33,424 bases of DNA from Alphaproteobacteria bacterium (GTDB taxonomy: Bacteria; Pseudomonadota; Alphaproteobacteria; JAJTHO01; CANGYM01): NCBI GenBank assembly GCA_947458145.1, contig CANGYM010000007.1, forward strand, positions 1-33,424, in the 5' to 3' direction. This document shows positions 990-27,117 of the stretch, one piece after another. The translations under genes were made by a program, and so were the position numbers. The notes beneath the pieces were generated by a model, which worked only from the letters and a program-made list of their open reading frames with translations, was not told the DNA's origin and did no database searches. The stretch's first letter is position 1. The number at the start of each line of letters is the position of its first letter.

Positions 990-3900
990 ATGACTTTGTT
1001 GACGGCCCTGCACCATGTTACCCGTTATGATTATGATCGCCCGATTATGCTCGGGCCTCAGACCATTCGGCTGCGTCCTGCCCCCCATGCGCGGGCGTTG
1101 GTGGAATCCTATAGTTTGCAGGTCACGCCCAAGCCCCATTTTTTAAACTGGCAGCAGGATCCCTTTGGGAACCACTTGGCCCGCGTGGTGTTTCCCGAGC
1201 CCACCCGTTTTTTGCAGGTTGCGGTGGATCTGGTCACCGACATTCGGGTGTTTAATCCTTTTGATTTTTTCCTAGAAGACACCGCGCAGCACATTCCCTT
1301 TGTCTATGATGCCAGCACCGCCGAAGAGCTGATTCCCTATTTGGAAATCAAAGATCGGGGGCCGCTGCTGACGACCTTTTTATCGGGCATCCCCCGCACC
1401 AAAACCCCCACCATTGATTTTCTGGTGGCCCTGAACCAGCGGGTGCATCATCATCTGGCCTATGGCATTCGTTTGGAGCCTGGGGTGCAGTCCTGCGAAG
1501 AGACCATGGAAAAGCGCAGCGGATCCTGCCGCGATATGGCGTGGCTGCTGTGCCAGATGCTGCGGCATCTGGGGCTGGCCAGTCGCTTTGCCTCAGGGTA
1601 TTTGATCCAATTAAAGGCCGATGTGGACGCCCTCGATGGGCCGAATGGACCCAAGGAAGATTTTACGGATCTGCATGCATGGTGCGAGGTTTATTTGCCC
1701 GGGGCCGGATGGGTGGGGCTGGATCCCACGTCGGGGCTGTTTGCGGGTGAGGGGCATATTCCGTTATGCTGCACCCCCAACCCATCGAGCGCGGCGCCCA
1801 TCAGTGGCGTGCTGGATCCGTGCGAAAGCACGTTGCATCACAGCATGACGGTGACACGCATTCACGAAGATCACCGCGTCAGCAAACCCTATCCCCCGTT
1901 GCTATGGCAGGCCATCGATGATTTGGGCCAAAAGGTGGATCAGGATTTAATCGCCGGTGATGTGCGCCTGACCATGGGCGGGGAGCCGACTTTTGTCTCG
2001 CTGGATGAGCGTGACCACCCCGCATGGGAAACCGCCGCGCTGGGCGGGCAGAAAAAGGCATTGGCCTATACCCTGTTTCAGCCCCTGTGTCCCGCAGGAT
2101 CCGTGCAGCAATTTTCCCATGGGAAATGGTACCCGGGGGAAATTTTGCCCCGCTGGTCCATGGCGTCCTATGGCCGTAAAGATGGATTGCCGATTTGGAA
2201 AAACAGGGCCCGTCTGGCGGACCCCGAAAAGCCCGAGGGCCACACCCCTGAAATGGCCAAGGCGTTTTTGCAGGATTTGGTTCAGGTTTTGGGGGTGTCA
2301 GGAGATGCCATTCTGCCAGCCTTTGAGGATATCCCTTACGCCCTGTGGAAAGAGGGAACTTTGCCGCTGGATGGGGATATTCGCCACGATGACCCGTTCG
2401 AGGCCGCTGAACGTGCCCGCCTGCAACGTCTGTTTGATCAAACCTATAACAGCCCTGCGGGCTATGTCCTGCCCCTGTTTTACAGTGTGGCGCAGGGGGG
2501 GTGGACCAGCGCGTTATGGGCGTTTCGGCGGGATCGTTTGGTGTTGTTGACGGGGGATTCACCGGTGGGATTGCGCTTGCCGCTGTCCAGTTTGCCCCAT
2601 GAGGCCCCCGCCGAACTTTTGCCCGAGCGCAGCCCTGAGGATCAGGGGGATCCCCTGCCCACTTTTGAGGATTTATTGCCGCCCAAGTCTGAAGCCTTCC
2701 GCTGGGACAGCACCGTTCGTACGGCCCTGTGTGCTGAGGTTCGGGGCGGCACGCTGCATTTGTTTTTGCCGCCGTTGTCTTACGCCGAGCATGCCTTGGC
2801 CCTGTTGGCGGCGGTGGAGGCGGTAGCGGAGGCCCAAAACGTGGCGGTGGTGTTGGAGGGGTATCCTCTGCCGGCCGATTTGCGTCTGCAATATTTCAGC
2901 GTCACCCCCGATCCCGGGGTGATTGAGGTGAACATTCAACCCGCCCATTCCTGGGATGATTTAAAAACCATCACGGAAAGGGTTTATGAAACGGCCCGAC
3001 AATCCCGCCTGACTGCCGATAAATTTCTGCTGGATGGCCGGCGCGTGGGCACCGGCGGGGGCAATCACATTGTCACGGGGGCCGCCACGCCGCAGGATAG
3101 CCCGTTTTTGCGCCGTCCCGATTTGCTGAAAAGTTTGCTGACGTTCTGGCAAAATCATCCGTCCTTATCCTATTTATTTTCCGGTCAGTTTATTGGTCCC
3201 ACCAGCCAAGCCCCCCGCGTGGATGAGGCCCGTTTGGACAGTTTGTATGAACTGGACATTGCCCTGTCCCATATTCCCCAAAGGGGCAGCGGGGAGATGC
3301 CGCACTGGTTGCTGGACCGGATGCTGAGGAATCTGTTGGTGGATTTAACGGGCAACACCCATCGGTCGGAATTTTGTATTGATAAACTCTATAGCCCCGA
3401 CAGCCAGCGCGGGCGGCTGGGCCTGCTGGAGATGCGCGGGTTTGAAATGACGCCCCATCCGCAGATGAATTTGCTGCAGGCGCTGTTGATTCGGGCGTGC
3501 ATTGCGGCCTTTTGGCATAAGCCCTATCAGGCCCCTTTGGTGGCGTGGGGTACGCGGTTGCATGATCAATTTATGTTGCCCCATTGTGTGTGGCAGGATT
3601 TTCTGGATGTTTTGGGCACATTGAAACACCATGGGTATGCCTTTGATCCGGTGTGGTTTTTGCCGTTTTTGGATTTTCGTTTTCCCCTGTATGGTACGGT
3701 TCAGGTGGGGGATGTGCGGCTGGAGCTGCGCATGGCCCTCGAGCCTTGGCCCGTGATGGGGGAAGAGCCCGCCCTGGGCGGGGGCACATCGCGGGGGGTG
3801 GATTCGTCATTAGAGCGTCTGCAGGTGGCCGCCCACGGCCTGATCCCCGGGCGTCACATCGTGACGTGCAACCGTTACCCCCTGCCCTTGGTGGCCACAG

Positions 3901-4223
3901 AGGCCATGGATACCTTTGTGGCGGGGGTGCGGTACAAAGCTTGGGCCCCCGCGTCATCCCTGCACCCCACCATTCCCATGCACACGCCGTTGGTGTTTGA
4001 CGTGGTGGATACGCGGTATTCTCGGTCGTTGGGGGGTTGCACGTATCACGTGATGCACCCGGGGGGCCGCAATTACGAACGCCTGCCCATCAATGAAAAC
4101 GAAGCCGAAGGCCGCCGCCTGTCCCGTTTTGAAAAAAGCGGTCATACCGCAGGGGCCTTTGTCCCCAAACCGGCCCTGCACCATCCGGCGTTTCCCTGTA
4201 CGTTGGATTTGCGATGGGGGTGA
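990..4223 (+). CDS. Transglutaminase-like / DUF2126 large protein
   Basis: A 1077-residue protein in two parts. Residues 1-290 are a bacterial transglutaminase-like N-terminal domain and core with a full papain-like triad: Cys180 in GSCRDMAWL, His229 in DLHAWCEVY and Asp245 in GLDPTSG. From about residue 325 (LTMGGEPTFVSLDERDHPAW) to the end it is DUF2126, including the family's conserved EF.IDKLYSP and GRLGLLEMRGFEM blocks at about residues 793-822. There is no signal peptide, so it is probably cytosolic. In other proteobacteria this family usually neighbours a circularly permuted ATP-grasp protein and an alpha-E protein, and the set is thought to act in peptide ligation or modification; the substrate is unknown. 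Neither partner is in this window. The gene converges with an unknown gene whose stop lies five bases away. Confidence 0.9.
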   Translation: MTLLTALHHVTRYDYDRPIMLGPQTIRLRPAPHARALVESYSLQVTPKPHFLNWQQDPFGNHLARVVFPEPTRFLQVAVDLVTDIRVFNPFDFFLEDTAQHIPFVYDASTAEELIPYLEIKDRGPLLTTFLSGIPRTKTPTIDFLVALNQRVHHHLAYGIRLEPGVQSCEETMEKRSGSCRDMAWLLCQMLRHLGLASRFASGYLIQLKADVDALDGPNGPKEDFTDLHAWCEVYLPGAGWVGLDPTSGLFAGEGHIPLCCTPNPSSAAPISGVLDPCESTLHHSMTVTRIHEDHRVSKPYPPLLWQAIDDLGQKVDQDLIAGDVRLTMGGEPTFVSLDERDHPAWETAALGGQKKALAYTLFQPLCPAGSVQQFSHGKWYPGEILPRWSMASYGRKDGLPIWKNRARLADPEKPEGHTPEMAKAFLQDLVQVLGVSGDAILPAFEDIPYALWKEGTLPLDGDIRHDDPFEAAERARLQRLFDQTYNSPAGYVLPLFYSVAQGGWTSALWAFRRDRLVLLTGDSPVGLRLPLSSLPHEAPAELLPERSPEDQGDPLPTFEDLLPPKSEAFRWDSTVRTALCAEVRGGTLHLFLPPLSYAEHALALLAAVEAVAEAQNVAVVLEGYPLPADLRLQYFSVTPDPGVIEVNIQPAHSWDDLKTITERVYETARQSRLTADKFLLDGRRVGTGGGNHIVTGAATPQDSPFLRRPDLLKSLLTFWQNHPSLSYLFSGQFIGPTSQAPRVDEARLDSLYELDIALSHIPQRGSGEMPHWLLDRMLRNLLVDLTGNTHRSEFCIDKLYSPDSQRGRLGLLEMRGFEMTPHPQMNLLQALLIRACIAAFWHKPYQAPLVAWGTRLHDQFMLPHCVWQDFLDVLGTLKHHGYAFDPVWFLPFLDFRFPLYGTVQVGDVRLELRMALEPWPVMGEEPALGGGTSRGVDSSLERLQVAAHGLIPGRHIVTCNRYPLPLVATEAMDTFVAGVRYKAWAPASSLHPTIPMHTPLVFDVVDTRYSRSLGGCTYHVMHPGGRNYERLPINENEAEGRRLSRFEKSGHTAGAFVPKPALHHPAFPCTLDLRWG

Positions 4224-5203: not shown

Positions 5204-5340
5204 TCAAGCGGCGTCCTTGAGGAGGATGGTTTTTGTATACGCGGAGGGTGTGGATCCTTTCAAGGCATAATGTGGGCGGTAAGTGTTATATTTGTGGACG
5301 GCGGTTTTGAGGAGGGCGCGGCCCATTCCCAAAGCCTTCC
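5204..5340 (-). pseudogene. Transposase C-terminal remnant (IS3/IS481-like integrase core)
   Basis: Read on the minus strand, the bases just beyond the antirepressor gene's stop encode about 44 residues that include HKYNTYRPHYALKGSTPSAY and end in LLKDAA before TGA. The YNTYRPHxxLxxxTPxxY block is the hallmark of the extreme C-terminus of IS3 and IS481 transposases, just after the catalytic Glu. The upstream catalytic domain is absent: the frame runs straight into the 3' end of the BRO-N/DinD gene, so this is a 3' fragment left after deletion or recombination. It has no start of its own. It shows that an insertion sequence once sat between the antirepressor gene and the two unknown small genes. 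Confidence 0.7.
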
Positions 5341-6215
5341 TATGGATTGTCCATCCCCGCCTCGCCACGTTTTTTCTGCCCCCTGACGGCTTTGGGCGTG
5401 GTTACGTTTAAATAATTCTCACCGCTCACCACACTTCGCCCCAATTCTGCCTCGGCCTGCTTGCGGGCGGTGCCTGCCACACCGCCGCCGCGCTTGGCGA
5501 CACGGCGATTTTCTGCCAACCCTTCCGGTTGTTCTTTACCGGAAATCTCGGTGGTTACTCTCTCGCCCAACATGGTGAAAATCAATTCCAAATCGGTCAT
5601 ATGATCCCGCAGGTTTACGCCCGATTTTTCTGGTAGGTTCTTATGTTTTTTATATTCTTTTGGCGTCATGCCAAAGGTGGCGCGGGAGATATCAGCAGTC
5701 AGAATGGCGTAATCCTTCTGGCTGGTGAGACCCCGCTGTTTCCATTCATCGGTCAAATCCTGCCGCACCGCCATGCCGCGCAGGCGCTTGTCGATCCAGT
5801 CTTTGGGATAGCCTTTTTCCTCGTAAAGGCGTTTCATGCGCTCTTGCGCCAGTTCAGGATTTTCAATTTCTTGAATGCGTTCATACCCCACCTTCGCCAG
5901 CCAACGCTTGAACGGTTCGGCCCTGGGGGACGGAATAGACTGAATAATCCGCAACAGGGATTCGGTATTGGCGCAATCAGTCGCACGCATTTTTCCGTCA
6001 GGAGCAGGCAGTTTCAACCCGTGACAAAATGTCACGACTTCACTCTCTTCCTCATTCAGCCGCTGTTTCAGCTTGCGCCAATAGGCCCCAGGGTCTGGGC
6101 TTTCGGTGAGTGCGCCTGCCACGTCCACCACCGAAAACCACCATGCACCCTGATGCCAAGTACGGCGGATTTTTTGTTCGTTGAATAAAACAATAGCCCC
6201 GTGCGTTTCGGTCAT
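5340..6215 (-). CDS. BRO-N / DinD-like antirepressor protein (full-length copy)
   Basis: 291 residues. Residues 1-120 are a BRO-N domain, the DNA-binding module of phage antirepressors: IRRTWHQGAWWFSVVDVAGAL near the start and PFKRWLAKVGYERIQE near its end. The C-terminal half (KDYAILTADISRATFGMTPKEY through LRDHMTDLELIFTMLGERVTTE) resembles DNA-damage-inducible protein D. The start is supported by AGGGGAG a few bases before the ATG. It begins 18 bases after the precorrin-2 dehydrogenase stop, so it probably shares the cysI transcript, an odd host for a phage-type regulator. Its first 158 codons recur near 26.2 kb. An insertion-sequence remnant abuts its 3' end. The regulated target is unknown and no LexA box was recognised. 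Confidence 0.85.
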   Translation of the reverse strand: MTETHGAIVLFNEQKIRRTWHQGAWWFSVVDVAGALTESPDPGAYWRKLKQRLNEEESEVVTFCHGLKLPAPDGKMRATDCANTESLLRIIQSIPSPRAEPFKRWLAKVGYERIQEIENPELAQERMKRLYEEKGYPKDWIDKRLRGMAVRQDLTDEWKQRGLTSQKDYAILTADISRATFGMTPKEYKKHKNLPEKSGVNLRDHMTDLELIFTMLGERVTTEISGKEQPEGLAENRRVAKRGGGVAGTARKQAEAELGRSVVSGENYLNVTTPKAVRGQKKRGEAGMDNP

Positions 6216-6403
6216 ACGCTCCCCTGCAAAATGTTACCCCTTCCCCACCAACCCCGAAAACCCATCCCTGAGAGCCTTGGCCACATCAGCAAAGCTGACC
6301 CCTTCGGCTTTTAGGCGGGCGCGGAGGGCCACCAGATCTTCGAAAGATTTTCCCCATGCGGGGGGAAACACGTGGGTGCCCAGATGCTGCGTGATGGCTT
6401 TGG
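5740..6403 (-). repeat. Inverted duplicated segment, copy 1 (intact)
   Basis: Covers the last ~57 codons of the precorrin-2 dehydrogenase gene, the 18-base spacer and the first ~158 codons of the BRO-N/DinD gene. It recurs in opposite orientation at 26036-26647. From the last codons of the first gene onward (the VGKG stop region) the copies are about 97% identical; I counted roughly 15 differences in 475 coding bases. Upstream of that the match is clearly weaker and copy 2 lacks about 50 bases. Both genes are whole here, so this is the ancestral arrangement. Confidence 0.85.
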
Positions 6404-6773
6404 ACAGGCCCGCCGCTTGGCCGTCGCTGGACACTGTGATCATCACCGGTCCCCGCCGCATGAGGGAGGGAACGTGAAAATCACACAGGGGCTTCACGTC
6501 CTCCACATTCACAAAGGCCCCGCCGGCCTTGGCGGCGGTGTAATAGGGACGGGCTTCGTCTTCGCCAAGGCCCGCAATATAAACAACGCGGTACGTGCCG
6601 GCGGATAAGCGGGGCAACAGGGACGGGTCCCCCGCCCCCTCTTGCGGCAAGGCATAAAGGTCAAGGGCGCCCGCGCCGGCCTCGGTCAACAGGGTCAGGC
6701 GTTTGTCATAGGCCTCCCCCCGTCCCGCCAAGGCGATGGGCAGTGTCTCCACATCCAGCATCAGGGGCAGCAT
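6234..6773 (-). CDS. Precorrin-2 dehydrogenase (siroheme synthase N-terminal domain)
   Basis: 179 residues matching the NAD-binding part of CysG/Met8: MLPLMLDVETLPIALAGRGEAYDKR, where GRGE replaces the usual GGGEVA nucleotide-binding turn, then VNVEDVKPLCDFHVPSLMRRGPVMITVSSDGQAAGLSKAI in broken form as the family's dinucleotide and substrate-binding core. It would oxidise precorrin-2 to sirohydrochlorin, and possibly insert iron, to supply siroheme. There is no uroporphyrinogen methyltransferase domain, so that step must be encoded elsewhere. Its ATG overlaps the cysI stop (TGATG), implying translational coupling with the siroheme-using enzyme. Its last 57 codons recur as a broken relic near 26.1 kb. 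The residue motifs are seen; the exact activity is inferred from the family. Confidence 0.85.
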   Translation of the reverse strand: MLPLMLDVETLPIALAGRGEAYDKRLTLLTEAGAGALDLYALPQEGAGDPSLLPRLSAGTYRVVYIAGLGEDEARPYYTAAKAGGAFVNVEDVKPLCDFHVPSLMRRGPVMITVSSDGQAAGLSKAITQHLGTHVFPPAWGKSFEDLVALRARLKAEGVSFADVAKALRDGFSGLVGKG

Positions 6774-8485
6774 CAGGCGGCGTCCGCCAGCAGGGCCTTC
6801 ATATACTCCCCGCCCCGATCATGGCAATAATCCCCAAAGGTGGCGTGTTTGTCCGTCCGATGATCCCGAAAATCCACAAAGGCCTTTTTCAGGGTGCCGG
6901 TGATGGCTTCGTAGGGGAGTTTATCAAGGACTTTTTCACTGAGCCGCGTGCCCAAAAAATCCCCCCCCAAATACAGGGCATACACCCCAGGGGTGCGGCC
7001 CACCAACCCAATATCCCCAGCATAGGGACGGGCGCAGCCGTTGGGGCAGCCCGTGATGCGCAGCGTAAAAAGGTCTTGGCTGAGGCCAATGTCCGCCAGC
7101 ATGGTTTCAATATCCGTCATCAGGGGATCATGGATCCGCTCGGCCTCCGTTAAGGCCAAGCCGCACGTCGGCAAGGCCGGACAGGCCATGGACCAGCGGC
7201 GCACGTTGGAAAGATCATCCCGCAATTTCACACCGTGCTCTTGAAACACGGCCTCCACCGCGGGGCGATCTTGGGGGCGAATGTCCCCCAAAATGACATC
7301 CTGCGTGGGGCTGATCACCACCAAGGGGGCATAATCCGTCACCACACGGCGCAGCGCAGAGCGCAAACGCAACGCGCCCACGTCATGAACACGGCCACTG
7401 AGGACCGGCAGGCCAAGGTATAACAACCCATCCCCCTGTTCATGCCAGCCCAAATGATCCACGATGGTATAGGGCGCTTGGGGTCTGGGATCGTCCAGAG
7501 GGCGTCCCATGATGATTTCCATCTGGGCTTTGACCCACGCTTCCCCCTGTTCCTGCACCACGTATTTGATGCGGGCATGTTTGCGGTTTGTGCGGTCCCC
7601 CCAATCACGGTGAACGGTGACCACGGCGCGGGCGGCGGCCAGCAAATCCTGCGGTCCCACAAAACAGATGGGGGTGGCCAGACGCGGATAGGTTTCGGCT
7701 TTGTTATGGGTGATGCCAAGGCCCCCGCCCACGTGAATGTTGTACCCCAACAACGTCTTCTGATCGTCAAACAACGCCACAATGGCCAGATCGTTGGTGA
7801 GAACATCCACGGAATTGTCCTGCGGCACGGTGATGCCGATTTTGAATTTTCGTGGCAGATAGGTGGCGCTGTACAGATCCTCAACCTGCCCCCCATCTTT
7901 GTTCACAGAGGGGTTGTGGACGTCGGCGAATTTTTCGTTATCCAACCAGATTTCGGCATAGGCGTTGGAGCGCGGCAACAACGATGCGGACAGCATGTCG
8001 GCATCCTGAAACAGGCGTTGATGGATGGGGTCCTGAATGGGGGCTGCGATGGTGGTGACGTTACGCACCACATCGCCGCAGGCGGCCTCGGTGGTGAAAA
8101 GGCTTTCGTTAATCCCCGCAATGGTGGCGTGTAAATCGCCCTTTAGGATGTTGTGATACTGAATGGCTTGGCGGGTGGTGAAACGCAATTTCCCGCCGCC
8201 GTATTGATCGGCCAGCGCGTCAAAATGCAGATACTGCGCCCGATCCATGCGCCCGCCCGGGATGCGCACACGAATCATCATTTCGTATTCTTTATCCAGT
8301 TTCATTTTTTTCCGCTCGGTGGCGGTGTCGCGGTTGTAACCCTGATAGACCCCGTGGAATTTCAAAAGGTTATACATATCCTCAGAAAACGGGATTTGGG
8401 CATCGCCCAAGTCCCCCTTGATCGTGCCGCGCAGCTGCTGGCTGGTGGCCTTAACATCTTCAACGTGGGAGAGCTTTTCAGTCAT
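6773..8485 (-). CDS. cysI: Sulfite reductase hemoprotein subunit (nitrite/sulfite reductase family)
   Basis: Reduces sulfite to sulfide at a siroheme coupled to a 4Fe-4S cluster, in assimilatory sulfur metabolism. The four cluster ligands are Cys435 and Cys441 in CPALPTC, and Cys480 and Cys484 in CPNGC; spacing and position agree with E. coli CysI within one residue. Length 570 residues is also equal to that enzyme. Substrate-binding arginines are expected in the RFTTRQAIQYHNI block near residue 105. No flavoprotein subunit (CysJ) is in the window, so the electron donor is unknown. The gene heads a minus-strand operon with precorrin-2 dehydrogenase. No clear Shine-Dalgarno sequence precedes the ATG. 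A good promoter lies 37 bases upstream and overlaps the divergent rnd promoter. Confidence 0.95.
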   Translation of the reverse strand: MTEKLSHVEDVKATSQQLRGTIKGDLGDAQIPFSEDMYNLLKFHGVYQGYNRDTATERKKMKLDKEYEMMIRVRIPGGRMDRAQYLHFDALADQYGGGKLRFTTRQAIQYHNILKGDLHATIAGINESLFTTEAACGDVVRNVTTIAAPIQDPIHQRLFQDADMLSASLLPRSNAYAEIWLDNEKFADVHNPSVNKDGGQVEDLYSATYLPRKFKIGITVPQDNSVDVLTNDLAIVALFDDQKTLLGYNIHVGGGLGITHNKAETYPRLATPICFVGPQDLLAAARAVVTVHRDWGDRTNRKHARIKYVVQEQGEAWVKAQMEIIMGRPLDDPRPQAPYTIVDHLGWHEQGDGLLYLGLPVLSGRVHDVGALRLRSALRRVVTDYAPLVVISPTQDVILGDIRPQDRPAVEAVFQEHGVKLRDDLSNVRRWSMACPALPTCGLALTEAERIHDPLMTDIETMLADIGLSQDLFTLRITGCPNGCARPYAGDIGLVGRTPGVYALYLGGDFLGTRLSEKVLDKLPYEAITGTLKKAFVDFRDHRTDKHATFGDYCHDRGGEYMKALLADAA

Positions 8486-9819: not shown

Positions 9820-10518
9820 GTGTCTTTTTTGCCTGAGTTTTTAACGGTTCACCTGCCCAGTCTGATGGTGGGGGCCGTGACCACCCTGCAATTAACTTTG
9901 GTGTCTTTTGGCCTGAGCTTGCTCATTGGCCTTATATGGGCGATGATGTGCCTTTATGGCCATCCTGTTGTGGCCAGGGCGGCGAAAAGTTTATCGTTGT
10001 TTTTTCGGGGCATGCCAGAACTGCTGATCATTCTGGCGGTGTATTATCTGCATGGGCCGATTCTGGAAATTCTGACATGGGGGCGCATCAGCCAGTTGTC
10101 GTCGTTTGCGTCGGGTGTTTTGGCGTTGTCCCTGTGTTATGGGGCCTATGCCAACGAAGTGATCCGTTATGCCATCATCACCATTCCCCCCCAGCAGATC
10201 GAGGCTGCGGATGCCTTCGCCCTTTCTGCCAAACGCCGATTCCTGAGAATCATTCTGCCGCAGGCGACCTTTCGCTCTCTCAAAGGTCTGACAAATCTGT
10301 TTTTGTCTTTGATGAAGGACACGGCGCTGCTGTCTGTCATCAGTGTGCCGGAATTGATTCGTATGACGCATCTGAGCATTGCCACCGCCAAGAATCCGTT
10401 CACCTTTTACATGCTTGCGGCGTGTTTGTATTTGCTGATGACCTTTTTTGTTCTGTTCATCATGCGTGTTTTGGACCGTGTTTATTTTTATCGTTTTATG
10501 AGCGAGGATCGACCGTGA
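9820..10518 (+). CDS. Polar amino-acid ABC transporter permease (HisM/HisQ family), orphan
   Basis: A 232-residue inner-membrane permease with about five hydrophobic segments, beginning at LMVGAVTTLQLTLVSFGLSL. The cytoplasmic EAA loop contacts the ATPase and begins at Glu128: EAADAFALSAKRRFLRIILP. The SLFFRGMPELLIILAVYY block is typical of the His/Glu/Gln/Arg transporter family. The start is GTG, with GAGG about 11 bases upstream. No binding protein, ATPase or second permease is adjacent. Instead its stop overlaps the start of metC (TGATG). A link with methionine, cystine or another sulfur amino acid is suggested by that coupling but is inference. Confidence 0.85.
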   Translation: MSFLPEFLTVHLPSLMVGAVTTLQLTLVSFGLSLLIGLIWAMMCLYGHPVVARAAKSLSLFFRGMPELLIILAVYYLHGPILEILTWGRISQLSSFASGVLALSLCYGAYANEVIRYAIITIPPQQIEAADAFALSAKRRFLRIILPQATFRSLKGLTNLFLSLMKDTALLSVISVPELIRMTHLSIATAKNPFTFYMLAACLYLLMTFFVLFIMRVLDRVYFYRFMSEDRP

Positions 10519-11657
10519 TGCACCCCGAAACCCGTTTGGCCCATATGGCCCGCGATGCCCGTCGTTTTGATGGGGCTGTCAATTTGCCTGTGATGCGGGC
10601 CTCCACCGTGTTGTTCGAGGATACGCAGCATCTGAAAACCACCGAAAAAACATGGTGGGAAAAACCTTATTATGGTCGCCATGGCTTAACCCCCACCTTT
10701 GCCTTTGAAGAGGCCATCGCGCAGCTGGAGGGGGGATACAAAGCCATTGCCGTGGAATCCGGTCTGGCGGCTTTAACCTGCGCGTTGTCTGCATTTTTAA
10801 AAAGCGGGGATCATGTTTTGATTCATGATGCGGCCTATGGCCCTGTGCGGCACTATTGTGATGATGTGTTGCGGCGCTTTGGGGTGGAGGTGACGTATTA
10901 TCACCCCAATCAAGATATCGCCGCCCTGATCCGTCCCCATACCCGCGTTTTGCATCTGGAGGCCCCTGGGTCCATTACCTTTGACATGCAGGACATTCCC
11001 GCCCTGTGCGCCCTGGCCCAAAGCCGAGGCATCATCACCGTTCTGGACAACACATGGGCCACCCCCCTGTATTTTCAGGGGTGCGTGGTTGGGGTTGATG
11101 TGGTCACCCATGCAGCCACAAAATATCTGGTGGGCCATTCCGATGCCCTGCTGGGGGTGATGGTGGCCAGAAACGAGGCGGTGTATCACACCCTGAAAAC
11201 AAATGCTGCGCGTCATGGGCACCATGCTGCGCCGGATGATCTGTATTTGGCGCTGCGGGGTATGCGTACTCTGGCCGTCCGATTGGCCCGCCATCAGGAC
11301 ACCGCTGGGCGTTTGATGACATGGCTGGCGGATCATCCCTTGGTGGCGCGGATTTTGTCCCCTGCCTATCCTGAGCATGAAGGTCACGCCCTTTGGAAAC
11401 GGGATTTTTCAGGGGCCAGTGGCTTGTTTTCCTGTGTGATGAATATGGATTATCCGGCGCTGTGTCAGGTTGTGGATCGTTTGACCCTGTTTGGGCTGGG
11501 TTACAGTTGGGGAGGCTTTGAATCACTGGCCGTTCCCTTTGATATGCGCCGCGCCCGCACCGCCCAACCATGGACCGAGGGCCCCGTTCTGAGACTTCAT
11601 GCAGGATTAGAACACCCCGACGATTTGATTGGGGATTTGGCTAACGCTTTGGGGTGA
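10518..11657 (+). CDS. metC: Cystathionine beta-lyase
   Basis: A PLP enzyme of 379 residues that cleaves cystathionine to homocysteine, pyruvate and ammonia in methionine synthesis. The PLP lysine is Lys202 in HAATKYLVGHSDAL. YGRHGLTPTFAFEEAIAQLEG and LDNTWATPLYFQ are typical Cys/Met-metabolism PLP blocks. The same frame is open back to 9936, but that extension lies inside the permease gene. The true start is the ATG at 10518, which overlaps the permease stop and has GAGGA nine bases upstream. It converges with mutS across seven bases. A related cystathionine or methionine gamma-lyase cannot be fully excluded, but the alphaproteobacterial MetC style (FDGAVNLPVMRASTVLFED) is clear. Confidence 0.92.
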   Translation: MHPETRLAHMARDARRFDGAVNLPVMRASTVLFEDTQHLKTTEKTWWEKPYYGRHGLTPTFAFEEAIAQLEGGYKAIAVESGLAALTCALSAFLKSGDHVLIHDAAYGPVRHYCDDVLRRFGVEVTYYHPNQDIAALIRPHTRVLHLEAPGSITFDMQDIPALCALAQSRGIITVLDNTWATPLYFQGCVVGVDVVTHAATKYLVGHSDALLGVMVARNEAVYHTLKTNAARHGHHAAPDDLYLALRGMRTLAVRLARHQDTAGRLMTWLADHPLVARILSPAYPEHEGHALWKRDFSGASGLFSCVMNMDYPALCQVVDRLTLFGLGYSWGGFESLAVPFDMRRARTAQPWTEGPVLRLHAGLEHPDDLIGDLANALG

Positions 11658-22799: not shown

Positions 22800-25700
22800 A
22801 TGCCCAAACGAGAGGATATTTCGTCGATTTTGATCATTGGGGCGGGGCCCATTGTCATTGGTCAGGCGTGCGAGTTTGATTATTCGGGAACACAGGCCTG
22901 CCGCGCCCTGCGGGACGAAGGATACCGCGTGATCCTGATCAATTCCAATCCCGCCACCATTATGACGGACCCCTCATCGGCCGATGCGGTGTATATTGAA
23001 CCCATCACCCCTGACTTTGTCACCCAGATCATTGCCAAAGAACGCCCTGATGCTTTGTTGCCCACCATGGGGGGGCAGACGGCTTTGAACACGGCGCTGG
23101 CTTTGGAAAAGGCCGGTGTTTTAAAACAGTACAATGTGGAATTGATCGGGGCCAACGCCGAGAGCATTGAACGCGCCGAAGATCGCCTGAAATTCCGCAA
23201 TATCATGGACGGCTTGGGTCTGGAAAGCCCCAAAAGTCAATTGGTGCGATCCCTCAGCGATGCGCGAGAGGCGCTGTCTTTGGTGGGACTGCCGGCCATC
23301 ATTCGACCCTCGTTCACCTTGGCCGGAACGGGCGGTGGCATTGCGTACAACAGCGAAGAGTTTGAAGCCATTGTGGGCAACGGTCTGAAACTCTCTCCCG
23401 TGGGGGAGGTGTTGGTTGAGGAATCCGTTCTGGGCTGGAAAGAATATGAAATGGAGGTCGTGCGCGACCGCGCCGATAACGCCATCATTGTCTGTTCCAT
23501 CGAAAACATCGACCCCATGGGCATTCACACAGGGGACAGCATCACCGTGGCGCCGGCGTTGACCCTGACGGATAAAGAATATCAGCAAATGCGCGATGCC
23601 TCCATCGCCGTTTTGCGGGCCATTGGGGTGGAAACAGGGGGATCCAACGTGCAGTTTGCGGTGAATCCGGAAACGGGCCGTCAGGTGGTCATTGAAATGA
23701 ACCCCCGCGTGTCGCGCTCTTCGGCCTTGGCGTCAAAGGCCACGGGATTCCCCATTGCGAAAATTGCGGCCAAGCTGGCCGTGGGCTATACGCTGGATGA
23801 ACTGCAAAACGACATCACCCGCACCACACCGGCGGCGTTTGAGCCCACCATTGATTATGTGGTCACCAAAATCCCGCGCTTTGCCTTTGAAAAATTCCCG
23901 GGCACCACCCACCATTTGACCACCGCCATGAAATCTGTGGGTGAGGTTATGGGGCTGGGCCGTAATTTCAAAGAATCCTTTCAAAAAGCCTTGGCCTCTT
24001 TGGAAACGGGCCTCACCGGCTTGAACACCCCAAAAGGCGCTGACTCTGTGGATACCGAGGCCCTGCGGCGCAAGCTGGCCGAGCCTATTCCTGAGCGTTT
24101 GCTGTGGGTGGCCGAGGGTCTGCGGCGCGGCCTGACGCCGGAGGATATCTATGCCATCACAAAAATTGATCTGTGGTATCTGCGCCAGATCGCCGAAATT
24201 GTGGACACAGAAAAGGCATTAACAACGATGACGCCAGAAAGCCTGTCCCCCGAAGATTGGCTGTCCCTGAAACGCGACGGGTTTACCGATGCCCGTTTGG
24301 GGGAAGTGCTGGGGGTTTCCCCTGAGGCTGTGAAACAGCATCGCTTGGGCCTTCCCGTGGTTTACAAGCGGGTGGATACTTGCGCGGCGGAATTTGCCGC
24401 CAGCACGGCCTATATGTACAGCACCCACGAAGCGGCTGGTCAGGGTCGTGAATCCCTAACCTGCGAAGCCAACGTTTCTGACAAAACCAAAATCGTGATT
24501 CTGGGCGGCGGCCCCAACCGGATTGGTCAGGGGATTGAATTTGATTATTGCTGCGTTCATGCGGTTCTGGCCACGCGGGCCTTGGGTCACGAGGCCATTA
24601 TGGTCAACTGCAACCCCGAAACCGTGTCCACCGATTATGATTTGTCGGATCGCCTCTATTTTGAACCCTTAACGGCCGAACACGTCATTCAGATTTGCCA
24701 AAAAGAACAGGAAAACGGCCGCCTGCTGGGCGTCATCGTGCAATTCGGGGGACAAACCCCCCTGAAACTGGCCCACGCGCTAGAGGCCGCCGGCATTCCC
24801 ATTTTGGGCACATCCCCCGATGCCATTGATCTGGCGGAGGATCGCGAGCGCTTTCAGCAATTGCTGCATACCCTGAACCTGAAACAACCCGCCAACGCCA
24901 TTGCGCTGGGGGCGGAGGACGCTCTGCGGCACGGGCAGGCCCTTGGCTTTCCGCTGGTTGTTCGCCCCAGTTACGTTTTGGGCGGGCGGGCCATGGCGGT
25001 GGTGCATGATGCTGATGAACTGCGGGCCTATCTGGAGCGCGAAGCGGCCATCTTGGGGGATAAACCCATTTTGCTGGATTCCTTTCTGAATGATGCCTAT
25101 GAAATTGACGTGGATGCCCTGTGCGATGGGCAAGATGTCTTTGTGGCCGGCATTATGGAACACATCGAAGAGGCCGGCATTCACTCCGGTGATTCCGCGT
25201 GTTCTCTGCCGCCCCATTCTTTGCCGGATCGTCTGTGCGATGAATTGAAACGTCAAACCCTCGCTTTGGCCTTGGCCCTGAAGGTGCGGGGCCTGATGAA
25301 CATCCAATTCGCCATTCGTGATAACGTGGTGTATGTGCTGGAGGTCAACCCCCGCGCATCCCGCACCGTGCCCTTTGTGGCCAAAGCCACGGGTTTGCCG
25401 CTGGCGGCCATGGCCACGCGCCTGATGGCGGGGCAGACGTTGGCGGATTTGCCGGAACTGAAAACCTATACCCCGCCGCTGTCTTTTGCGGTGAAGGAAT
25501 CCGTGTTTCCGTTTTCCCGTTTCCCAGGGGTGGATGTGCTGCTGGGCCCAGAAATGAAATCCACGGGGGAGGTCATGGGGCGCGATGCCACCTTCGCCCG
25601 TGCCTATGCCAAGGCCCAGATTGCTGCGGGCACGCCGCTGCCCCTGTCGGGGCGTGTGTTTCTTTCGGTGCGGGATGCGGACAAAGCCGCCATTGTGACA

Positions 25701-26024
25701 CTGGCCAAAGATCTGGAATCCATGGGCTTTGCCCTGCTGGCCACCCAAGGCACCGCCGCCATCATTCGCAGCGCCGGTTGCACAGTGGAAACCGTGCTGA
25801 AGGTTGGGGAGGGTCGCCCCGATATCGTCGATGCCCTGATCAGCAAAACCGTGGATCTGGTCATCAACACCACATCGGGATCGCAGGCCATCAAGGACAG
25901 TTTTTCCATCCGCCGCACCGCTGTGACCAACAGCATCCCCTACGTCACAACCTTGGCCGCCGCCCGCGCCACGGTTTCCGCCATGCGGGCCACGAAGGAG
26001 GAAGGGTTGCGGATTTTTGGGTAG
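22800..26024 (+). CDS. carB: Carbamoyl-phosphate synthase large subunit
   Basis: Makes carbamoyl phosphate from bicarbonate, ATP and ammonia passed from CarA, feeding arginine and pyrimidine synthesis. 1074 residues, the normal length. Two homologous ATP-grasp halves are visible. Each opens with a dinucleotide-like loop ([20 protein letters not shown] near residue 10; [18 protein letters not shown] near 565) and each carries an ATP-grasp core with (V/E)(I/V)NPR ([24 protein letters not shown]). An oligomerisation domain separates them, and the C-terminal 130 residues are the allosteric domain. AGAGGA supports the ATG. carA is not adjacent. The duplicated BRO-N segment begins about 11 bases after its stop. 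Confidence 0.98.
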
Positions 26025-26035
26025 GTGAAAAAAAA

Positions 26036-26153
26036 CCAAGGTCATCACCCAGCGTCTGGGACACGTGGTCTTTCCTGAACCCTGGGGCCAGCTTTGCTGA
26101 GGTGGCTAGGGGCTTTGAGGGAGGGGTTTGCGGGGTTGGTGGGGAAGGGGTAA
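26036..26153 (+). pseudogene. Relic of the precorrin-2 dehydrogenase 3' end
   Basis: Just after carB the plus strand encodes VITQRLGHVVFPEPWG, matching AITQHLGTHVFPPAWG of the gene at 6234-6773. It then jumps to ASFAEVA (matching VSFADVA), shifts frame by one base, and ends REGFAGLVGKG plus TAA, matching RDGFSGLVGKG plus TAA. About 50 bases (17 codons) are missing between two short G-runs, as expected from slippage or microhomology deletion. It has no start and cannot be translated as one protein. It is the flank carried along when the BRO-N segment was duplicated. Confidence 0.8.
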
Positions 26154-26647
26154 CATTTTGCAGGGGGGCGCATGACCGAAACGCACGGGGCTATTGTTTT
26201 ATTCAACGCACAAAAAATCCGCCGTACTTGGTATCACGGTGCATGGTGGTTTTCGGTGGTGGACGTGGCAGGCGCACTCACCGAAAGCCCAGACCCTGGG
26301 GCCTATTGGCGCAAGCTGAAACAGCGGCTGAATGAGGAAGAAAGTGAAGTCGTGACATTTTGTCACGGGTTGAAACTGCCTGCTCCTGACGGAAAAATGC
26401 GTGCGACTGATTGCGCCAACACCGAATCGCTGTTGCGGATTATTCAGTCTATTCCGTCCCCCAAGGCCGAACCGTTCAAGCGTTGGCTGGCGAAGGTGGG
26501 GTATGAGCGGATTCAAGAGATTGAAAATCCTGAACCGGCGCAAGAGCGCATGAAAGGCCTTTACGAGGAAAAAGGCTATCCCAAAGACTGGATCGACAAA
26601 CGCCTGCGTGGTATGGCGGTGCGGCAGGATTTGACCGATGAATGGAA
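26036..26647 (+). repeat. Inverted duplicated segment, copy 2 (decayed)
   Basis: Counterpart of 5740-6403 in opposite orientation. The left edge lies about 11 bases after the carB stop. The right edge is inside codon 159 of the BRO-N gene, after GATGAATGGA. The BRO-N half keeps about 97% identity, whereas the first ~90 bases are clearly more diverged and carry a deletion and a frameshift. No target-site duplication or transposase was seen at either edge. Confidence 0.85.
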
Positions 26648-26873
26648 TCGTTTCACCCAGAAAGTCGATGTTGCTTATAAAACCGTTATTTTGCGCACAG
26701 TGAATGGCTTTTTTCATCGGCAGGATGATTCACGCCGTCGTTTACAGGCACATGAGGGATCAGAAATGGGTTCACGCCCTCGAGACATCCTACATTATAG
26801 CCGTATTGATTGGGGAACGAACGTCTTTGATGATGGGTATAGATACCACAAACGCTACAAAAGTAGTGTTTAG
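26172..26873 (+). pseudogene. Truncated second copy of the BRO-N/DinD antirepressor gene
   Basis: The first 158 codons match the full-length gene on the other strand with about six residue changes (for example Glu13 to Ala, and the HQ pair to YH near residue 21). The reading frame is intact through the whole BRO-N domain and the AGGGGGG Shine-Dalgarno-like sequence is kept. After TDEW the similarity stops. The frame runs on for 75 unrelated codons that lie largely antisense to the GFA gene (26686-27117), so this tail is accidental and the DinD-like C-terminal half is missing. It may be dead, or it may make a BRO-N protein able to bind DNA without the effector half. Near-identity in the coding part argues that decay is recent or is opposed. 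Confidence 0.75.
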
Positions 26874-27117
26874 CCACATAAGTGTTGAATTGATACAGTT
26901 GCAGATTCTCTTTCCCTTGCACTATGTGTATAGCATCAATAGAAACTGACGCTACGATGGCACCTTTTCGGCGGCACATAGAACAATCGCATCTGCGTGG
27001 GTTAACGATACCTTCAGGCAGCGTCAGTTCCAACACCACTGAACCACAGTGGCACGTCAGCCGATGCTTGGGCTGTATAACGACATTGCCCACTTGCTGA
27101 ATTCCCATATCTACCAC
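26686..27117 (-). CDS. GFA (glutathione-dependent formaldehyde-activating) family zinc protein
   Basis: 143 residues with the Mss4-like zinc fold of the GFA/CENP-V family. Cysteine sets are visible in order: Cys22-x-Cys24 (LTCHCGSVVLEL), Cys43/Cys45/Cys48 (RRCDCSMCRRKGA) and Cys87-x2-Cys90 (YFCSVCGIYTHH). Members are often named for formaldehyde-glutathione adduct formation, but most have no proven activity, so I assign only the family. The GTG start at 27117 overlaps the stop of the autotransporter gene; an ATG three codons in (27108) is an alternative. No good Shine-Dalgarno sequence precedes either, suggesting coupling to the upstream gene. Its 3' end faces the truncated BRO-N copy. Confidence 0.8.
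   Translation of the reverse strand: MVDMGIQQVGNVVIQPKHRLTCHCGSVVLELTLPEGIVNPRRCDCSMCRRKGAIVASVSIDAIHIVQGKENLQLYQFNTYVAKHYFCSVCGIYTHHQRRSFPNQYGYNVGCLEGVNPFLIPHVPVNDGVNHPADEKSHSLCAK

What the first reader, a model, noticed from the sequence alone, without database searches (positions are those of the whole stretch)
5740..6403. Inverted 0.6 kb duplication joining a siroheme-gene tail to a BRO-N antirepressor gene
The same two-gene junction occurs at 5740-6403 (minus) and 26036-26647 (plus), about 20 kb apart in opposite orientation. Only the first copy has both genes whole, so the second was derived from it or from a relative with the same order. Two long inverted repeats can also recombine and flip the 20 kb between them, which holds rnd, mutS, purM, rpsB, tsf and carB.
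Basis: seen in the sequence. Interest (0 to 1): 0.7.

Follow-up and report, generated by a model that had tools for sequence, protein, structure and literature searches.

The report
Inverted, truncated copy of roaming gene
A small alphaproteobacterium-like genome carries one whole and one broken, oppositely oriented copy of a widespread DNA-binding-type gene; the duplication itself is ordinary, but the gene's family is striking because its members sit inside many unrelated gene clusters, including CRISPR and restriction systems, and swap the middle of their recognition domain.

Summary
The repeat is real: 5740-6302 (-) and 26084-26647 (+) are 95.4% identical over 564 nt, with a weaker, gapped match out to about 6403/26036. 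There are only two copies in the genome. Copy 1 is a complete 291-aa gene behind an intact cysG-like gene. Copy 2 is a decayed cysG 3' piece plus the first 158 codons, cut off next to a convergent gene. In congener G001, cysG and carB stand without the insert, so copy 1 is the source type. No evidence of inversion was found; gene order in the congener is scrambled. "Antirepressor" is misleading: the gene belongs to phage-defence-candidate family PDC-S13, common in chromosomes (at least 553 relatives) and rare in viruses. Its fold resembles Deinococcus DdrC. Beyond the window, relatives sit tightly inside operons, including CRISPR types I-C, I-E, I-F, II and V-A and restriction loci. Residues about 39-86 are exchanged independently of the rest (r = -0.08 against 0.79 within the C-terminal part; repeated in a second sample). 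I found no description of this in the papers I could search.

The parts
6234..6773 (-). cysG-like gene (siroheme synthase N-terminal / precorrin-2 dehydrogenase type), intact, 179 aa, follows the sulfite reductase gene 6773-8485
   Evidence: NCBIfam CysG model E 1.5e-15 (below its cut-off), Pfam NAD_binding_7; same position behind the sulfite reductase gene in G001
5340..6215 (-). copy 1: complete 291-aa Bro-N + DinD/DdrC-like gene, family PDC-S13
   Evidence: Pfam Bro-N E 1.4e-11; PADLOC PDC-S13 E 1.8e-120; AlphaFold2 pLDDT 85.7
5740..6302 (-). repeat arm 1 (95.4% identical to arm 2); decayed homology continues to about 6403
26084..26647 (+). repeat arm 2; decayed homology continues to about 26036
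26036..26153 (+). cysG 3' fragment behind carB: frameshifted, about 50 nt deleted; 27 of 120 aligned sites differ from copy 1
26172..26647 (+). copy 2: first 158 codons of the Bro-N gene, truncated (open ORF to 26873 is a run-on into antisense of the GFA gene)
5958..6101 (-). residues 39-86 of copy 1: the segment that is exchanged between family members (exact edges uncertain, about residues 14-88 in the clearest pair)
   Evidence: block structure of pairwise identities
26286..26429 (+). same segment in copy 2; its protein sequence is identical to that of copy 1, so copy 2 offers no alternative module
26686..27117 (-). GFA-family gene convergent to copy 2; copy 2 breaks off 38 nt beyond its stop codon
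   Evidence: Pfam GFA E 1.7e-11
22800..26024 (+). carB, intact, directly upstream of the cysG fragment
   Evidence: NCBIfam PRK05294 E = 0; 94% aa identity of its C-terminal part to G001

Best explanation
A solitary, laterally acquired chromosomal gene (family PDC-S13: winged-helix-type Bro-N domain plus a helical DinD/DdrC-like part, inferred to bind DNA) sits behind cysI-cysG. A stretch of the chromosome holding the end of cysG and the gene was copied, inverted, to the 3' side of carB by the cell's own repair or recombination. Shown: the copied stretch includes host-gene sequence, and no transposase or terminal repeat was seen at either site. The second copy was truncated where it meets a convergent gene and is a relic, or at most an N-terminal fragment. 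The Bro-N tract of the two copies was probably evened out later by homologous recombination, because it is far more alike than the cysG stretch next to it (inferred). The full-length protein is most likely a DNA-binding factor of stress or phage response, expressed by hitch-hiking on the upstream operon (inferred).
For: Only two copies, one complete. cysG tail native in G001 without the gene. Copy 2 carries the Pro change at residue 122, invariant among the 42 aligned homologues, and has 9 derived changes against 4 in copy 1. dS between copies 0.09 against 0.33-0.60 between this genome and G001 for carB, cysI and cysG. The copied cysG piece shares 13 sites with G001 alone and 14 with copy 1 alone, so it split off about as early as the species did, while the Bro-N tract did not. 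Divergence drops sharply about 90 nt into copy 2, near 26126. Family assignment; fold.
Against: The difference between cysG piece and Bro-N tract could also come from selection on Bro-N in both copies, or from a donor in a related species. dN/dS of 0.18 between the copies (6 nonsynonymous, 9 synonymous) is low for a gene that was dead from the start. Numbers are small. DNA binding and defence were not tested.
Confidence: 0.66

Rival explanations
1. Copy 2 came from another species of the genus that had the same cysG-Bro-N order, and recombined in behind carB.
For: The cysG piece of copy 2 is as close to G001 as to copy 1 (13 against 14 sites).
Against: The Bro-N tract is only 3.2% different, which would need a second, recent transfer or conversion. 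G001's own Bro-N gene is of a different clade and lies elsewhere.
Confidence: 0.18
2. The inverted pair is an active switch: recombination flips the 20 kb and so puts the full-length gene behind either cysG or carB.
For: Inverted arms of 537 nt at 96% are long enough for homologous recombination, and the crossover would re-join the C-terminal half to the other upstream operon. Inverted hsdS copies work this way in type I restriction loci (PMC7394358).
Against: 20 kb of housekeeping genes would be flipped; there is no recombinase next to the arms; the exchangeable segment is identical in both copies; no inverted form was seen in any genome.
Confidence: 0.07
3. The pair is an assembly artefact of a 111-contig draft.
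For: A draft genome in 111 contigs; exact shared stretches up to 104 nt.
Against: The copies differ at 15 coding sites, with indels in the cysG piece, and have different flanks; an artefact would give identical copies. carB and cysG flanks agree with G001 up to the junctions.
Confidence: 0.05
4. It is a phage antirepressor left by a prophage.
For: Bro-N domain; a PHROG family of unknown function matches.
Against: No phage gene was recognised next to either copy; only 4 of 50,697 phage records and 8 IMG/VR loci match, against at least 553 chromosomal relatives.
Confidence: 0.04

Closest known systems
PDC-S13, phage defence candidate, single gene (PADLOC-DB)
   Same: Full-length match, E 1.8e-120; many relatives lie in defence operons.
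   Different: No function has been tested that I could find; here the gene lies behind a siroheme gene, not in a defence island.
DNA damage-inducible protein D (DinD), E. coli
   Same: Weak match of the part behind Bro-N, E 0.0016.
   Different: Far below that model's cut-off (17.8 of 242 bits).
DdrC of Deinococcus radiodurans
   Same: Best solved fold over most of the length, E 8e-6. DdrC binds, condenses and anneals DNA (PMC5436757).
   Different: Only 10-14% identity, TM-score 0.3-0.44, and no sequence hit.
Bro-N / KilA antirepressors of phages
   Same: Bro-N domain of the same Pfam family; viral fold hits include Bro-N and KilA-N proteins.
   Different: Different C-terminal part; hardly present in phages.
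HsdS target-recognition-domain shuffling (analogy only)
   Same: A variable recognition-like segment on a constant scaffold, and full plus partial copies in one locus (L012, L072, L078).
   Different: Unrelated protein; specificity was not shown; in the window both copies carry the same segment.

Membership tests
PDC-S13 | Full-length profile match | tested here: met
   Residues 5-276 against profile 4-274 of 286, E 1.8e-120
PDC-S13 | Located next to defence genes | tested here: not met
   Neighbours in the window are cysG, carB and other housekeeping genes; met for many relatives. This is a usual trait of the family, not a sequence criterion of the model.
PDC-S13 | Protects against phage | not testable with these tools
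Bro-N domain protein | Pfam PF02498 above gathering score | tested here: met
   45.3 bits against a cut-off of 25.6
Phage antirepressor | Phage or prophage context | tested here: not met
   no phage gene recognised beside either copy
DinD (NF008573) | Score above the family cut-off | tested here: not met
   17.8 against 242 bits
DdrC fold | Same fold over the full length | tested here: inconclusive
   Foldseek probability 1.00, but TM-score 0.30-0.44
Inverting (phase-variable) gene pair | Long inverted copies | tested here: met
   537 nt, 96%
Inverting (phase-variable) gene pair | Different variable segment in each copy | tested here: not met
   Residues 39-86 identical in both copies
Inverting (phase-variable) gene pair | Both orientations present | not testable with these tools
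   No reads available

The most novel reading that the evidence does not exclude
The PDC-S13 family is a roaming, operon-embedded recognition gene. It is inserted again and again between genes of unrelated CRISPR-Cas and restriction operons, with start and stop often overlapping the neighbours by 4 nt, and it diversifies by exchanging one segment of its Bro-N domain on a constant DNA-binding scaffold, with partial extra copies such as the one in this window as by-products or donors.
Probability: 0.4. Interest if true: 0.75.

Novelty: new variant of a known kind. Interest (0 to 1): 0.5.

Why it matters
The duplication alone is of local interest. It shows that the gene can be copied inside a genome together with a piece of its host operon, without a transposase at hand. 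The family-wide pattern matters more: one small protein built into at least five CRISPR subtypes and type I restriction loci, with an independently exchanged segment in its recognition domain, points to an uncharacterised accessory or competitor of these systems and gives a concrete segment (residues about 39-86) to test for specificity.

Tried and rejected
A search for a third copy found none. Reading copy 2's C-terminal 75 residues as a new domain was rejected: they are antisense to the GFA gene. The idea that the cysG tail is part of a mobile element was rejected: it is native in G001. Ancestral orientation of the 20 kb from gene order in G001 could not be read, because the order is scrambled. 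Common DNA motifs outside the ORF: similarity between relatives in different places mostly starts near the ATG and ends near the stop, but at 78-90% coding identity unselected flanks would be unrecognisable, so this does not prove precise insertion. Selection of relatives by likeness to the window protein could distort the exchange test; the control split inside the C-terminal part (r = 0.79) and a second sample found by profile answer that. No solved structure was found by sequence. Papers on Bro-N with CRISPR, and on PDC-S13, gave nothing on this family. L032's large upstream gene was first taken for Cas12a but did not match that model, so it is not counted as type V-A.

Full report
Observation. 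The inverted repeat is real. Self-comparison of the window gives exactly one such pair, 5740-6302 (-) and 26084-26647 (+), 95.4% over 564 columns, with an ungapped core of 537 nt at 96% and 19,834 nt between the arms. A search of the 1.41 Mb genome finds these two places and no others.

Anatomy. Copy 1 is the complete gene 5340-6215 (-), 291 aa, 18 nt behind a cysG-like gene (6234-6773 -), which itself overlaps the sulfite reductase gene 6773-8485. Copy 2 follows carB (stop at 26024). It consists of a broken cysG 3' piece (26036-26153: one inserted base, about 50 nt missing), the same intergenic stretch, and codons 1-158. It breaks off at 26647, 38 nt beyond the stop of a convergent GFA-family gene (26686-27117 -). 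The ORF runs on to 26873 only because the antisense strand of that gene happens to be open.

Direction and age. In congener G001 the cysG-like gene ends with the same motif and no Bro-N gene follows (L101), and carB there is followed by an unrelated convergent gene (L102). The piece behind carB is therefore cysG sequence carried there. Of the 15 differences in the shared coding part, 9 are synonymous and 6 change the protein, dN/dS 0.18. With the closest homologue as outgroup, 9 are new in copy 2 and 4 in copy 1, and copy 2 has lost leucine 122, which is invariant among the 42 aligned homologues. The coding tract is young (dS 0.09) beside the species split (dS 0.33 to 0.60 for cysI, carB and cysG). 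The cysG piece is not: 27 of 120 sites differ, and it shares as many sites with G001 as with copy 1 (13 and 14). The step lies near 26126. The simplest reading is an old copy whose Bro-N tract was later evened out by recombination between the arms; a donor from a related species or selection on both tracts are not excluded.

Inversion. The arms could recombine. If they did, the C-terminal half would be joined to the carB side and the gene would change its upstream operon (inference from the map). Nothing shows that this happens. In G001 the genes of the interval lie on at least seven contigs, so no ancestral orientation can be read.

What the gene is. Bro-N domain at residues 15-108; full-length match to the PADLOC phage-defence candidate PDC-S13, E 1.8e-120, and to a PHROG family of unknown function; a weak DinD match behind the Bro-N domain. 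The AlphaFold2 model (pLDDT 85.7) matches DdrC of Deinococcus best among solved structures (E 8e-6, but TM-score only 0.30-0.44). DdrC binds and anneals DNA (PMC5436757). The family is chromosomal: at least 553 relatives in genome contigs and 22 of 399 Pseudomonadota genomes, against 11 plasmid records, 4 phage records and 8 IMG/VR loci.

Where relatives sit. Neighbours point the same way in 54 of 65 cases upstream and 61 of 68 downstream; the commonest downstream gap is a 4-nt overlap. In G003 of the same order the gene lies between pheS and pheT with a 4-nt overlap on both sides. In 15 of 60 scanned cases the downstream gene is cas1. NCBIfam names the partners as type II Cas9 and Cas1, type V Cas12a and Cas4, Cas1c of I-C, Cas1e of I-E, and Cas1f with Cas3f of I-F. 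Restriction neighbours include HsdM, HsdS and HsdR. In the Pseudomonadota draw, which was not picked by likeness to the window, I count 9 of 20 loci beside defence genes (two of these, L141 and L147, by sequence likeness only). In a tree of 83 members the type I-linked and the class 2-linked members lie on opposite sides of a supported branch, members from different phyla intermix, and the congener's gene is not the sister of the window's.

Exchange of a segment. Pairwise identities of residues 39-86 and of residues 87-262 are unrelated (r = -0.08, permutation P = 0.90), while two halves of the C-terminal part agree (r = 0.79, P < 0.001). A second sample gives -0.09 and 0.57. In L082 and L086, both between cas9 and cas1, the first 13 residues and everything from about residue 88 on are nearly the same, while the middle is 38% identical; the DNA shows the same drop. 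L012, L072 and L078 hold a second, partial copy beside a full one, so a full-plus-partial pair like the window's recurs, though in the window both copies carry the same segment.

Verdict. The finding is a genuine but ordinary segmental duplication with a relic copy. What deserves follow-up is the family. Insertion in operons of several defence types and exchange of the segment are shown by sequence; its function, and whether the segment sets specificity, are inferred.

Noticed in passing
L104 (G003:C155), 1405-4079: The closest homologue lies between pheS and pheT, overlapping each by 4 nt (ATGA).
   Followed up: partly
L042, L054, L056, L064, L067, L073, L080, L082, L086: Family member between cas9 and cas1 (in L080 the upstream gene is cut by the contig end).
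   Followed up: partly
L139 and L141: Family member between cas1 and cas2-3 of type I-F loci, overlapping cas3 by 4 nt; L139 has an extra small gene in between.
   Followed up: partly
L082 and L086, start of the gene: Same CRISPR position, but residues about 14-88 replaced while both ends are kept.
   Followed up: yes
L078:2145-6837: Two IS200-type (Y1) transposase genes, one before an N-terminal fragment and one before a complete family member: the only case seen here with a transposase beside both copies.
   Followed up: partly
L140, L144-L148: Several members in the Pseudomonadota draw lack the C-terminal part, so loss from the 3' end may be common; some may be cut by frameshifts or contig ends.
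   Followed up: no
window 1-33424 against G001: Genes of the window lie on many different contigs of the congener despite 84-95% DNA identity: gene order is unusually fluid in this genus.
   Followed up: partly
window 9936-11657: 573-aa ORF whose residues 195-573 are cystathionine beta-lyase; the first about 195 residues are not covered by that family (possibly a fusion or a late true start).
   Followed up: no
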